Assembly (NCBI RefSeq): GCF_963576615.1
Contig: NC_088708.1
Coordinates: 57,709,196 to 57,773,195, forward strand
Direction: 5' to 3'
Length of the DNA: 64,000 bases
DNA from: Watersipora subatra
Lineage: Eukaryota > Bryozoa > Gymnolaemata > Cheilostomatida > Watersiporidae
The position numbers and the translations under genes are program-made. The notes beneath the pieces were generated by a model. It ran no database searches. It saw only the letters and a list, made by a program, of their open reading frames with translations, and was not told where the DNA came from. This document shows, one piece after another, positions 34,701-40,700 of this stretch. The first letter of the stretch is position 1. Each line of letters begins with the position of its first letter.

Positions 34701-37700
34701 CATAGCGGTCATCTGATCTTACAATGGACAGATGCCTGTAACTCCTCTTCTATTGCACATAAAAAGCTAGTTTTGGCAGCAAACTGTAGCAAACATATTA
34801 ATGAATGCAATAAGGTTTTATGCAACATCATTAAATCTAGATATACCATAAAAATATGCTTTCAAATAAAAATAAAAATTGAAAACTCCAACAAATTGCC
34901 AAGCAGGACATCGGCTATAATATCATTGCAGGTTAATTGCGAGCATAGATGTCAACTGGTACATAAAGATATTTCTCGGCTTCCCGATGCATACTTATTA
35001 AGAGATATTTGAGAAGTTGGAGGTAAGTTAGCAGATTTCTTGTATCCAAAAGGGTTAATGTCGCTCCACCCAAAGGAAGGCAAAATATAGGAGACATTTG
35101 TTTCGCTCATAAAAGCACTACATTTATCTTCTCACATTTTTGATGAGCCATTTGAAGAATACAACGCCAGACTGTATTTGAACGCCAGACTCTATTTGAA
35201 CGCCCCCCTCTATTGGACCACCACTATAGAGGAAGCGTTAAAGAATAGAGCGCCATGGCATTCAAATAGAGGTTTTACAGCATACGTAGACATATTTTGT
35301 CACTTTCAGTAGAGTTGCCCCGATTTTAATATCGGAATCGGTATCGGTGCCGATATGGGTGTTAAGTATCTGAATCGGTATCGGCCGATCTTTTCTTAAA
35401 AATCGGATAGTTAAGATACTTTTTTACAAATCAACTATTTAGCATAAAACCGTATTTTAGCCTGCTACACTAATAAAAAATTATCAGCTGCAAGTTCCTT
35501 ACTTTTACCTAATGAATTCCGGGCCTGTCACGCAAGCTATTTCATGTCTATAGCCTAATAAACATCCACACAGCTGAGGAATCTTTTGGCTTTAGTCAGG
35601 ACGTAATCATTAAGTGCGGTATTTCCCAATTACAGCGATATGATTTATCGAGAATGCCAATCGAGAATAATGATGAGCAACAAGAATGCGGTGTAACGTT
35701 TCTATTTGCTAGCATTACGAAAGTAATTTGAGTAGTCGATGCATAAAGTTATCCATCTCTCTCTTGATCCTGACGATATGATGTATCGTTTGTATCGCAT
35801 AAAATAATCTCATTGGCTTATCGGTATTTAGCCTGTCTTCCATCATCTGTGGCTAGTAAGTCCTTCTTCAGTACGACTGGCTACATCGATAGTGATAGAA
35901 GATAAAGGCGTCTCACTGAGGTAATTGAATCACTAACGGTAATTGAAAGAAACATTTATTTGAACTAAACTTGTACAGGCGCAGCAGTTCGTTCAGCAGT
36001 AGAAGAGAGACTTCATTATCACAGAGAAAGTTGTACCACTAACAGTAATTACCATTATTAATAGGTAACAGATTTCAAGAAACATGGACTGTTTTGTTAC
36101 TAGATGCACGGTATGGCAGTATGTGAATATATATACATGTATATCTTTTTTCCATAAATACAAACAAATAAATACATCAATATTTATATTTTATTTGAAT
36201 TATATTTATATTTGCATAATAAAATTAACAATTACCTATGCAACACAAAAGATCTGAATCGGTATCTGAATCGGATTATTTTTCAATAAGAATCGGTATA
36301 TCGAATCGGTATCTGAATCGGCTGGTGAAAATAGAATCGGGGCATCTCTAACTTTCAGCTGCAGACTTTATGTGTATCATCAATTTCATAGGCAGGATTG
36401 CTCCAGAAAAACAATTGGAGACTGATGTGTGTTAAAATGCAGCAGTATGAAGAACAAACTCAAAAATTAAAATTAACTGCAACTTCACAAATCCTGAAGA
36501 TCACCATTAAGGCCTGAAAGCATGGTGTTTCATTAGCAGCAGGCTTATCGCCTCATAACTGAAATAAAACAAGCCCTCACCACAGCTCCTGATATAGTTG
36601 TCCATGACCTCCTTTGATATACCAAGGGGATTATCGGCAGCAGGGGCATGCTTCTTGAGATAGTTGTGTATGCTGCCATCTGATTCTTGTATCTCAGCCA
36701 CAGCCTGGCTAGCCACAAACTCTATGAACCCTGACAACAGATACACAAATATAGGGACATCTCATTGGCAGGTTGAGCGCGCTACTTAAACGCAAGAAAA
36801 ACTAATGTTTACAGCTTGATTGCCATGACAACTTAAAAGCAGGTCCCTACTGTGTGGGTTAAGTTTGTGGATTTCACCAAATCAGAACAATAATACTAAT
36901 TCAAATGAAATTACAAATTTCAATTTTTCTGATTAAGCAAATCTTAAAGTGACTAAGCGACATTGAAAGGAAAATCTCTTGGAATTTTTTTTGGCGTGTG
37001 TATTCTTAAAAAAGGCCGAAAATATGAAACCAGTCCTACAACCAGCATACATACATATAACATGCTGATCTGATATATCTTCACTCGCACAAATGCCCCG
37101 CAGATGCTGTAAAATTCTTGTAACCCGAATGACCGTATCCCTATGTGGTGAGGGGTTAAAGAAGATCTACCATGGGGCAGTAACACTCTACAGCCAAGCT
37201 TGATGGTAATGGCAGAAAAGAAATTTCTACCTATATCATATGGCGACTCGTAAAATGTATCCTATTCTAATTTCCCATTACTAGTTTGCATCTCATAACA
37301 AAATAAGTTTAGCTGGCAAACCGTGTTTGCTGCCTGTCGCCAGGACTCTGTAGGGAGTTAATTTAAGGTCTAGGTTTTCTTTTCTCAGGAACTTGTCCAT
37401 TAGAAACACCATCTGTAGCACAAGTTGATCCTGTCGTAGATCATCTCTTTGCTTAAAAATGACAGTGTACCGCTCCTCAAGAGTTGTGACCAATGTCAGC
37501 TTAGCTGGACACACCGCACTCTAAACAACAGAAAATACGTGTAGAGTATCAGATAGACACAAGACATTAGCTGGGAGCAGCTCACTCTACTATGTAGTTT
37601 TCAGTTCAACATACAGAGTGTTAGCTGGACACAGAGCACTCTACTATGTAGTCTTCAGTCCAACATACAGAGTGTTAGCTGGACACAGAGCACTCTATGT

Positions 37701-40700
37701 AGTCTTCAGTTCAACATACAGAGTGTTAGCTGGACACAGAGCACTCTACTATGTAGTCCTCAGTCCAATATACAGAGTGTTAGCTGGACACAGAGTACTC
37801 TACTATGGAGTCTTCAGTCCAACATATAGTGCTGGTTGGACACAGAACACTCTACTATGGTGTCTTCAGTCCAACATATAGAGTGTTAGCTGGATACAGA
37901 GCACTCTACTATGTAGTCTTCAGTCCAACATACAGAGTGTTAGCTGGACACAGAGCACTCTACTATGAAGTCTTCAGTCCAACATACAGAGTGTTAGCTG
38001 GACACAGAGCACTCTACCATGAAGTCTTCAGTCCAACATACAGAGTGTTAGCTGGACACAGAGCACTCTACTATGGAGTCTTCAGTCCAGCATATAGAGT
38101 GTTAGCTGGATACAGAGCACTCTACTATGTAGTCTTCAGTCCAACATACAGAGTGTTAGCTGGACACAGAGCACTCTACTATGAAGTCTTCAGTCCAACA
38201 TACAGAGTGTTAGCTGGACACAGAGCACTCTACTATGTAGTCCTCAGTCCAATATACAGAGTGTTAGCTGGACACAGAGTACTCTACTATGGAGTCTTCA
38301 GTCAAACATACAGAGTGTTAGCTGGACACAGAGCACTCTACTATGTAGTCCTCAGTCCAACATATAGAGTGTTAGCTGGATACAGAGCACTCTACTATGT
38401 AGTCTTCAGTCCAACATATAGTGCTGGTTGGACACAGAGCACTCTACTATGGAGTCTTCAGTCCAACATACAGAGTGTTAGCTGGACACAGAGCACTCTA
38501 CTATGAAGTCTTCAGTCCAACATATAATGCTGGCTGGACACAGTTATCTAGGCAATGTATTGACTGAACAAAGATCAGTAAGTTGAGCATCAGCAAATAC
38601 AAATTAACTAGACTCTGAACAAACCAGCCAGAAGCAGATGGCACTCACTTTGAACAAGTAGGCATTATCAGGTACAACAGCTTTTACAAGTCTGGTTGGG
38701 TCCAGCGGAAAAGGAAACGGCTCAAAAGAAGTGAAGGAAAAGTCTTTACCAAACGTCTCAGTGTCGGCCAATAATGACTGCAGCTTTTCTATCTGAGAAA
38801 AATAAACATTTTGATTAATTTGATATCTAAAATTTGAAATTTGGTTTTTTCTGGCCTGATGCAATAGTAGAGTATAACCGCGGTTTATCAATAAATTGAA
38901 ATCAATAAGCATTGATAAGTTGGCAGTTCATTTCGCACAAACAGGAAAACAAATGAGATGGTGAGCTATTTCTGAACATGGAACATTGTGCTGTAGAGCT
39001 ACTCAACAGCAAGGAGAAATGTGCTGTATAGTGCTCTATGACATGAGGAAATATACTGCAGTTATACTGCAATATACTGCCTGGCTGCACACACCAATGA
39101 AAAACATTGCTGACATATAGTGTAAATATTCACTGTGATGCTACTAAATATTTTGTGGTGTTGATAAATTTGCGACAAAGGTGTTGACCCAAAAGAATTT
39201 GGCCTATGCCTGTGAAGACTGTGACATCCTTGCTGGAGTTTCCATTAGCATTATACAAGGAGAGTCGGCATGTTATCTGATACGCATCATCAGCAATTTA
39301 TGATAGCATTGCTATAGTTTTACTGAAGACTAACGCTTGTAAGTTCAAGATAAAGCTCATGACATGAATCCAACTATAAAAAAGTAAGGTTCAACAGATT
39401 GAAGTTGTGTGTAGACTAGCCAATAACCTGTTATTACCTTTCGGCCAATTTTTGTAACTGAAATTCGTTTTGCGAATGAGCACATGGACCGATCTAATGT
39501 ATACCGACGGTTGGCATTACACATGACCATACTTCTGCCATTCTTATTGACTATCAGCACACACTAGCTTGTTCTAACTGAGACAATGGGGCAACACTCA
39601 CTCTGCTAAGTTGTCGTGATCGTACAATTTCTTGCAAACTTAACAAGTTGAAACTCTAGCTCGACTGATAGTTCGAAACAATTTCAGACAGCCAGAAATA
39701 GAAGCTTTTTTAGATTTATCAGCCAATCAAAATTTTAGCTGATTATTGGCCCGATTATTGGCTAGAGTCGACACGGCTTCAAGTATCTAAAAAATGCCTG
39801 AAAGCATTCTTGAACAGTGCCAATTGACACTAGCAGCCCTCACATATCTGTTAATAGCAAGAATATCATGGTCCAAATATAAATAGTTGCTTTTGTAAAC
39901 CTTATCGTCACAGTCGCTGGAAAGCGCATCTTAGATGCGAGTAACGTACATCGCGAATGAATAAAAAGGGAAACGAGAAAAATTTGATTGAAAACAACTA
40001 TTTCAGCCAATAATAAGGGTGCCAGGTTAATTTTTACTGACATGGACCGACATGTTCATTTCAACATGGTGAATTAACAAACTGTTACAAACGCGCGACC
40101 AACACCGTGATATGTGTAGCCTGACCTTTTCTCTAGGGCATGAAGAAATGCACTGCAGAATACCTTAGAACATACAGCAATGCAATGCATAGCTACTTAA
40201 GTAGAGGAGCGATATGTTGCATGATTGCCCCAGAATCGTCCTACAAATATAGTCATTAAAAAGCGATTTTGGTAATGCATTATAGGGTCTCTAAACGACA
40301 CTAAGCTTCATTATTCTTATAGAATGTTTCGTAATTGAAATATCAGATATGGCAAAAAGAGAATGAAGGTACATAAAATGAAAGGCTTCTCTATATTCAG
40401 AGGGAGTAACTCGGTAGCAGGATTGAGATTTTACGAAAGCAAATGATGCACAGAATATTTTACTATGCTGAATAGTCGTGAGAATTGTTTCTATGAAGCG
40501 AACCTGTGTATTGTTAACCTTAGTTCAATGAAAGTTAGCAAGAAACCAATTAATAAACTAAAGCAAGAAACCAATGTATAAACTAAAGCAAGAGAAAACA
40601 TGCTCTTTGTCATTATTGCTAGAGGAAATGTATAGAGTAAACCCACAATCAAAGAAGATTTTTGTACATTTTATGTATTCACACGGATGGAAGGTTGATT

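What the first reader, a model, noticed from the sequence alone, without database searches (positions are those of the whole stretch)
37500..38545. Minisatellite apparently built from the exon 14 splice acceptor, forming a row of decoy 3' splice sites in PIK3C3 intron 13
Seen: each of about 18 units (54 bp), read in the direction of transcription, carries TAG|AGTGCTCTGTGTCCAGC. The real exon 14 start is TTTAG|AGTGCGGTGTGTCCAGC, and the frames correspond (SALCPAN versus SAVCPAK). The unit nearest the exon is the most diverged and lies one period plus 12 bp from it, so exon and array are one continuous series. Each decoy reads 16 codons and then hits a stop just before the next unit. Its acceptor lacks the pyrimidine tract of the real one (purine-rich GACTGAAGACTACATAGTAG against TTTTCTGTTGTTTAG). 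Inference: exon-edge sequence was captured and amplified into the intron of an essential kinase gene. Accurate expression then depends on the spliceosome ignoring about 18 imitations, and any use would introduce a premature stop. Copy number could therefore tune VPS34 level.
Basis: partly seen in the sequence, partly recalled or inferred. Interest (0 to 1): 0.85.

Follow-up and report, generated by a model that had tools for sequence, protein, structure and literature searches.

The report
Exon-edge minisatellite in bryozoan PIK3C3 intron
A bryozoan gene carries about 18 tandem copies of a DNA unit that includes the first 20 letters of the next exon, most likely a harmless by-product of a mutational habit that copies exon edges into introns, known before from lancelets and seen here at several other genes of the same animal.

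Summary
The array is real: 54-bp units at 37583-38543, with 18 TAG|AGT acceptor-like sites upstream of the real acceptor (37520) of a PIK3C3/VPS34 exon, Watersipora subatra chromosome 1. Eighteen of the exon's first 20 bases, plus its AG, recur in the unit. Ungapped similarity at this junction is 36; of 206 other junctions 198 score 23 or less, and the genome search lists only two places outside the locus with 2 or fewer mismatches to the 20-mer. Human and fly have SAL where the exon has SAV and the units SAL, so the exon probably seeded the array. The claim of one continuous series fails: the intron side beyond TAG is no more alike than shuffles (607 of 1000). The decoys lack a pyrimidine tract and score like ordinary AGs; regulation is unsupported and untested. 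Repeats touching a junction recur here: 8 of 206 (6 with 10 or more exon bases) plus one found by TRF. This is the 'mirage' phenomenon of amphioxus in another phylum. Best reading: a mirage-like minisatellite, probably splicing-neutral.

The parts
37583..38543 (-). 54-bp minisatellite, 18.0 copies by TRF; units 51-54 bp
37587..38497 (-). 17 regular units with decoy acceptors; first base after AG at 38497, 38443, 38391, 38337, 38283, 38229, 38175, 38121, 38067, 38013, 37959, 37905, 37851, 37799, 37745, 37694, 37640
37521..37586 (-). Most diverged unit plus authentic intron end: 18th decoy TAG|AGTGAGC at 37586, 66 bp from the real acceptor
   Evidence: intron end not similar to unit
37523..37537 (-). 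Pyrimidine-rich stretch of the real acceptor, absent from the decoys
37322..37520 (-). PIK3C3 kinase-domain exon beginning SAVCPAK; its first 20 nt are the likely source of the unit's head
37501..37520 (-). Exon head shared with units (18 of 20 nt)
38649..38792 (-). Upstream PIK3C3 exon (IEKLQSL...AYLFK), donor AAA|GTGAGT

Best explanation
It is a locally born minisatellite of the 'mirage' type. A short duplication near the 3' end of a PIK3C3 intron copied the first ~20 bases of the downstream exon with its AG into the intron (similarity shown; the event inferred). The copy became part of a 54-bp unit that then multiplied and was homogenised, leaving the edge unit diverged (identical units 4, 5 and 9 units apart are shown). 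The units lack the pyrimidine tract of the true acceptor (shown), so they are probably ignored by the spliceosome and tolerated in an essential gene (inferred). The exon has since changed Leu to Val while the units keep the older Leu codon (inferred from human and fly). The cause is a tendency of this genome to tandemly duplicate short intronic DNA, sometimes across exon edges (copies touching the junction seen at 8 of 206 other sampled junctions and at one more found by TRF; cause inferred).
For: Exon head in units, same frame and register. Junction score 36; 198 of 206 other junctions score 23 or less, 109 of 109 exon interiors 25 or less, 13 of 13 other PIK3C3 acceptors 10-16. Two other places listed in 783.7 Mb match the 20-mer at <=2 mismatches. 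Conserved protein context SALMPA in human and fly: exon is ancestral, unit keeps Leu. Unit found only at this locus. Identical units at lags 4, 5, 9. Other junction copies: L071, L105, L106, L083, L046, L110, L091, L050 (8 of 206) and L060. Decoy acceptors weak. [quoted passage not shown]
Against: The shared stretch is short (20 of 22). A true boundary duplication should also carry the intron end, but unit and authentic intron end are unrelated beyond TAG (4628 of 5000 shuffles score as well or better; 607 of 1000). Gapped windows of equal score occur by chance in 2 of 14,216. The pattern has 35 off-locus hits at <=3 mismatches against 9 in all for its reversed control, so its background is not minimal. 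L106 has an upstream acceptor copy with an intact TTTGCTGCAG, so 'only disarmed acceptors survive' is not general. Three of 14 real acceptors score as low as the 61st-70th percentile, overlapping the best decoys.
Confidence: 0.75

Rival explanations
1. Regulatory decoy row: some array acceptors are used, give early stops and nonsense-mediated decay, and copy number tunes VPS34 level.
For: All 18 decoy frames hit a stop; TAG kept in all 17 regular units (0 changes at 3 positions); CTAAC 32-35 nt upstream of 15 of 18 decoys; human ABCA7 intron 18 VNTR, which includes a donor site, changes splicing with length (PMC5954066, passages).
Against: Decoys score like ordinary AGs and are T-poor. CTRAY is present at only 4 of 14 real acceptors of this gene against 18% of random positions, so the branch motif says little. 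Neutral homogenisation explains the conserved TAG. Stops arise in any unselected frame. Predicted pairing of the AG is as high at the real site as at decoys.
Confidence: 0.1
2. Chance resemblance: an unrelated intronic minisatellite that happens to match 20 of 22 bases at the exon start.
For: Arrays are everywhere in this genome (67 TRF rows of period 15 or more, in 38 of 56 loci), giving many trials; intronic side unrelated; 3 of 2000 shuffles and 2 of 14,216 windows reach the score with gaps.
Against: Ungapped, 198 of 206 junctions stay at 23 or less and 109 of 109 exon interiors at 25 or less, against 36 here; 0 of 555,718 positions at <=2 mismatches; the match starts at the splice site, in frame, next to the array, and keeps a conserved Leu.
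Confidence: 0.1
3. Reverse direction: the exon start was rebuilt from the array by a splice-site shift.
For: Exon and array are adjacent and share the edge.
Against: The exon head encodes a protein stretch conserved in human and fly at the same place.
Confidence: 0.03

Closest known systems
Amphioxus 'mirage' minisatellites (Adh3, globins BflGb6 and BflGb9; PMC3087553, passages seen)
   Same: Minisatellite-like tandem repeats made of an intron-exon boundary; homogenised interior with cluster boundaries excluded from it; AG/GT signals in many repeats; regular splicing reported as not disturbed
   Different: In BflGb6 the unit holds the 3' end of the intron plus the exon start; here only TAG plus about 20 exon bases are shared. 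Bryozoan, not cephalochordate. No RNA or haplotype data here
Human ABCA7 intron 18 VNTR (PMC5954066, passages seen)
   Same: Repeat unit (25 bp) that includes a splice site; further potential sites in a row
   Different: Donor side, the real site is the first two bases of the VNTR; length reported to alter splicing and disease risk
Human F7 intron 7 37-bp repeats (PMC6627357, one passage seen)
   Same: Row of near-identical splice sites next to an exon
   Different: Donor side; the most upstream 5' site used by oriented scanning
Human 6-16/G1P3 minisatellite with multiple splice donors (Nucleic Acids Res 1995; only its title seen, in a reference list; gene name recalled)
   Same: Minisatellite supplying repeated splice sites
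   Different: Donor side; paper not held, details not seen

Membership tests
Mirage minisatellite (exon-intron boundary tandem repeat) | Tandem repeat adjacent to the authentic junction | tested here: met
   18 sites, the last 66 bp from the exon
Mirage minisatellite (exon-intron boundary tandem repeat) | Unit contains the exon edge | tested here: met
   18 of 20 nt, AG in register
Mirage minisatellite (exon-intron boundary tandem repeat) | Unit contains the adjoining intron end | tested here: not met
   Beyond TAG no similarity above shuffles
Mirage minisatellite (exon-intron boundary tandem repeat) | Homogenised interior, diverged edge unit | tested here: met
   17 units 85-100% identical to consensus, exon-side edge unit 70%
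Mirage minisatellite (exon-intron boundary tandem repeat) | Length variation between haplotypes; no effect on regular splicing | not testable with these tools
   Alternate haplotype GCA_963576605.1 is named in PMC12902671 but not held
Regulatory intronic VNTR (ABCA7-like) | Repeat length changes splicing | not testable with these tools
   No RNA or genotype data
Dispersed repeat or transposon-borne unit | Unit found at other loci | tested here: not met
   10 of 10 matches of a 108-bp query and 17 of 17 of a 25-bp pattern (<=3 mismatches) lie in this array (counts are lower bounds by the tool's own note)

The most novel reading that the evidence does not exclude
Copying of exon-intron junctions into tandem arrays is a frequent, ongoing mutational process in this bryozoan (3-4% of sampled junctions), so mirages are not a cephalochordate oddity. 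Such arrays hand introns a stock of ready-made splice-site and exon-edge copies, a raw source of new splice sites, intron sliding and intron gain. The PIK3C3 array would be a case in which the acceptor copies survive because they lack a pyrimidine tract.
Probability: 0.4. Interest if true: 0.7.

Novelty: new variant of a known kind. Interest (0 to 1): 0.5.

Why it matters
Boundary-copying minisatellites were described in amphioxus, and donor-side cases in people. Finding several in one bryozoan genome, from an exact two-copy duplication (L105) to long arrays (PIK3C3, L110), gives a growth series in which the birth of such arrays, the decay or retention of decoy splice sites, and the proposed route to new introns can be tested by counting in existing assemblies and RNA-seq. 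For PIK3C3 itself the likely message is modest: an essential gene tolerates a row of weak acceptor look-alikes.

Tried and rejected
Homology of the unit's intronic part with the authentic intron end: global alignment worse than the shuffle mean (4628 of 5000 shuffles as good or better), local 607 of 1000 shuffles as good; with the longer 66-nt tail, which includes the diverged edge unit, 26 of 500. An alignment suggesting that the 12 extra bases are the pyrimidine tract looked neat but did not pass these tests, so it is not claimed.

RNA structure hiding the decoys: a 270-nt array piece folds at z -2.04 (8 of 200 shuffles as good), a 150-nt piece with the real site at z -0.61 (46 of 200); pairing of the AG is as high at the real site as at the decoys. 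Dropped.

Branch-site argument (CTAAC in most units): the motif is not enriched enough at real acceptors of this gene to mean much (4 of 14 against 18% of random positions).

Antisense reading frames (240 codons stop to stop at 37784-38506 +) were taken as a by-product of a period divisible by three; not searched further.

First version of the junction-copy survey (at a gapped score of 30, 8 of 160 junctions, 1 of 86 exon interiors, 38 of 304 intronic positions) was replaced, because four of its hits (L084, L063, L022, L050) were gappy on inspection. A second version (4 of 206) was faulty, because self-overlap hid real copies; one search is the one used. In all versions junctions were predicted by rule from Pfam matches, not by transcripts. 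Three fetched loci lying in the window (L027, L032, L040) were left out of the survey. A self-BLAST of 59 loci had shown only L071, so the count depends on the method.

Taxon identification by COX1 gave no match; the assembly size led to the genome note instead.
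Full report
WHERE IT IS. G000 has 783,720,542 bases in 239 contigs. Contig lengths C1 79.35, C2 77.13, C3 75.92, C4 67.13, C5 66.62, C6 66.55 and C7 66.31 Mb match, to 0.01 Mb, chromosomes 1-7 in the genome note of the bryozoan Watersipora subatra, tzWatSuba1.1, 783.70 Mb in 240 scaffolds (PMC12902671; listing, passages). 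The window is C1 (OY755158.1) 57,709,196-57,773,195.

THE GENE. Minus-strand frames between about 55.3 and 28.8 kb encode PIK3C3/VPS34: joined exon frames match human PIK3C3 chains at E = 2.6e-186, and single exons align in order. The exon in question (37322-37520) begins [11 protein letters not shown]; fly has SALMPAKLTFV and human SALMPAQLFF. The upstream exon ends LFK at 38649 with GTGAGT. Exon number 14 could not be verified, because several exons were not resolved.

THE ARRAY. TRF: 37583-38543, period 54, 18.0 copies. Eighteen TAG|AGT sites precede the real acceptor; spacing 54 x14, 52 x2, 51 x1, and 66 to the exon. Seventeen units are 85-100% identical to the consensus, the exon-side one 70%. 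Identical pairs lie 4, 5 and 9 units apart, which fits block duplication. Every decoy frame ends in a stop, 13 of 18 after 16 codons.

IS THE EXON MATCH REAL? The exon head AGTGCGGTGTGTCCAGCTAA differs from the unit AGTGCTCTGTGTCCAGCTAA at 2 of 20. The genome search lists the unit's 20-mer at 2 or fewer mismatches at 15 array sites, the exon, and two other places; at exactly 3 mismatches one more array site and 33 others; the reversed pattern, as control, gives 9 at up to 3 (the tool notes that counts of repeats are lower bounds). Any of the 54 registers at 2 or fewer mismatches: 0 of 430,114 positions in 76 loci and 0 of 125,604 in the rest of the window. Dinucleotide shuffles of the first 60 exon bases reach the score in 3 of 2000; with the exon shuffled but the intron kept, 0 of 1000 reach 30. 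With gaps, 2 of 14,216 unrelated 60-nt windows reach 30, and 0 of 6,272 in the rest of the window (best 28.5). In the junction survey (below) this junction scores 36, the other PIK3C3 acceptors 10-16 (13 of 13); 198 of 206 sampled junctions score 23 or less and 109 of 109 exon interiors 25 or less.

DIRECTION. The head encodes a stretch conserved in fly and human, so it belongs to the exon. The units read SAL (as in fly and human) where the exon reads SAV; tblastn of the fly stretch even lines up with decoys ([11 protein letters not shown], 6 of 11 identical), though at E-values of 30-47 that mean nothing by themselves. The diverged edge unit has G at head position 6, like the exon, and C at position 7, like the units, which fits an older head coding SAL; this rests on single bases and is only suggestive.

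WHAT WAS NOT CAPTURED. The unit's other 34 nt do not resemble the present intron end: global score -2.8 against a shuffle mean of -0.09; local 607 of 1000 shuffles as good. A 25-bp pattern from that part was found only in the array (17 of 17 matches at 3 or fewer mismatches). So the shared piece is TAG plus about 20 exon bases, not a whole splice acceptor.

ARE THE DECOYS SPLICE SITES? A matrix from 13 hand-curated PIK3C3 acceptors puts the real site at 4.0 (92nd percentile of 1,445 other AGs of the gene region) and the 18 decoys at -5.6 to 0.6 (31st to 74th). Some genuine sites are also weak by this small matrix when left out (G 61st, P 68th, N 70th percentile), so the difference is of degree. 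T content at -28..-4: decoys 6-8, real sites 8-14, this exon 13. Branch-like CTAAC sits 32-35 nt upstream of 15 of 18 decoys, but CTRAY is found at only 4 of 14 real acceptors here. Folding does not separate decoys from the real site.

THE WIDER PATTERN. Of 56 exon loci of the PI3/PI4-kinase and tyrosine-kinase families (59 fetched, 3 in the window dropped), 38 contain tandem arrays of period 15 or more, in loci reaching 1.5 kb either side of the match. I then asked whether an ungapped copy crosses the exon-intron junction (by at least 2 bases each side) within 400 bp, for junctions predicted by rule at 109 exons in 96 loci. At score 28 or more: 8 of 206 junctions (2 of 107 acceptors, 6 of 99 donors), 0 of 109 exon interiors (1 at 24 or more), 47 of 384 intronic positions. 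Six of the eight copies hold 10 or more exon bases: L071 (57 bp x 2.6, 34 exon bases plus GTAAGT; kinase), L105 (43 bp x 2, 34 exon bases plus GTACGT, 45 bases identical; myosin), L106 (129 bp, acceptor plus 24 exon bases, 64 bases identical; myosin), L083 (31 bp x 2, 19 exon bases plus GTATG; myosin), L046 (53 bp, 10 exon bases; three copies by eye, the third being the real acceptor, the upstream two keeping the T-rich tract but lacking the AG) and L050 (score 28, 17 exon bases, possibly noise). Two hold only 2 exon bases in the ungapped copy, that is, arrays that begin at a donor: L091 and L110 (32-bp units, at least nine seen; kinesin; by eye its AGCAACCCTGTGAG resembles the exon end AGCAAAACTGTGATG). 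L060, a 45-bp array starting at a donor GTGAGT, was found by TRF and scores 48 at its donor but was not among the rule's chosen junctions. Junctions thus lie between exon interiors and introns in repeat frequency: the process looks like ordinary intronic minisatellite birth that sometimes takes in an exon edge.

KNOWN PARALLELS. [quoted passage not shown] BflGb6 repeats the 3' end of an intron with the 5' part of exon 2, two haplotypes carry 6 and 3 units, and RT-PCR results suggest that regular splicing is not disturbed; the authors propose a route to intron gain (PMC3087553, passages). Human donor-side cases are ABCA7 (PMC5954066, passages), F7 (PMC6627357, one passage) and 6-16/G1P3 (title only). 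Ten paper searches, only one of which named bryozoans, listed no report of such arrays in bryozoans in this open-access library; that is no proof that none exists.

VERDICT. The array is best described as mirage-like: it fails the intron-end feature of a classic mirage, whereas L071, L105, L083 and L106 meet both features. The more interesting result is that such events recur in this genome.

Noticed in passing
L105:526-613: Myosin exon end plus donor GTACGTTT duplicated in tandem (43-bp shift, identical over 45 bases): a very young boundary duplication with two apparently equal donors.
   Followed up: partly
L110:608-900: Kinesin exon followed at once by an array of 32-bp units each beginning GTGAGTG or GAGAGTG, a row of decoy donors, some apparently intact.
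   Followed up: partly
L106:248-440 (minus orientation): Myosin acceptor with 24 exon bases copied 129 bp upstream inside an AT-rich tract; the copy keeps TTTGCTGCAG, so it may be a working alternative acceptor.
   Followed up: partly
L046:1367-1540: Tandem copies end in the real acceptor; the two upstream copies keep the T-rich tract but lack the AG, the mirror image of the PIK3C3 decoys.
   Followed up: partly
L071:1693-1840: Kinase exon end plus GTAAGT repeated 2.6 times at 57 bp; the third copy lacks the donor.
   Followed up: partly
37320-37322: The donor that follows the SAVCPAK exon reads ACG|GTTTGC, a poor match to the usual donor; not supported by transcripts.
   Followed up: no
45752-46032: A 15-bp array of 18.7 copies at 99% identity, open in more than one minus-strand frame, between PIK3C3 exons.
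   Followed up: no
survey of L018-L116: Junction copies were more often at donors (6 of 99) than acceptors (2 of 107); small numbers, but fits acceptors tolerating upstream copies less well.
   Followed up: no
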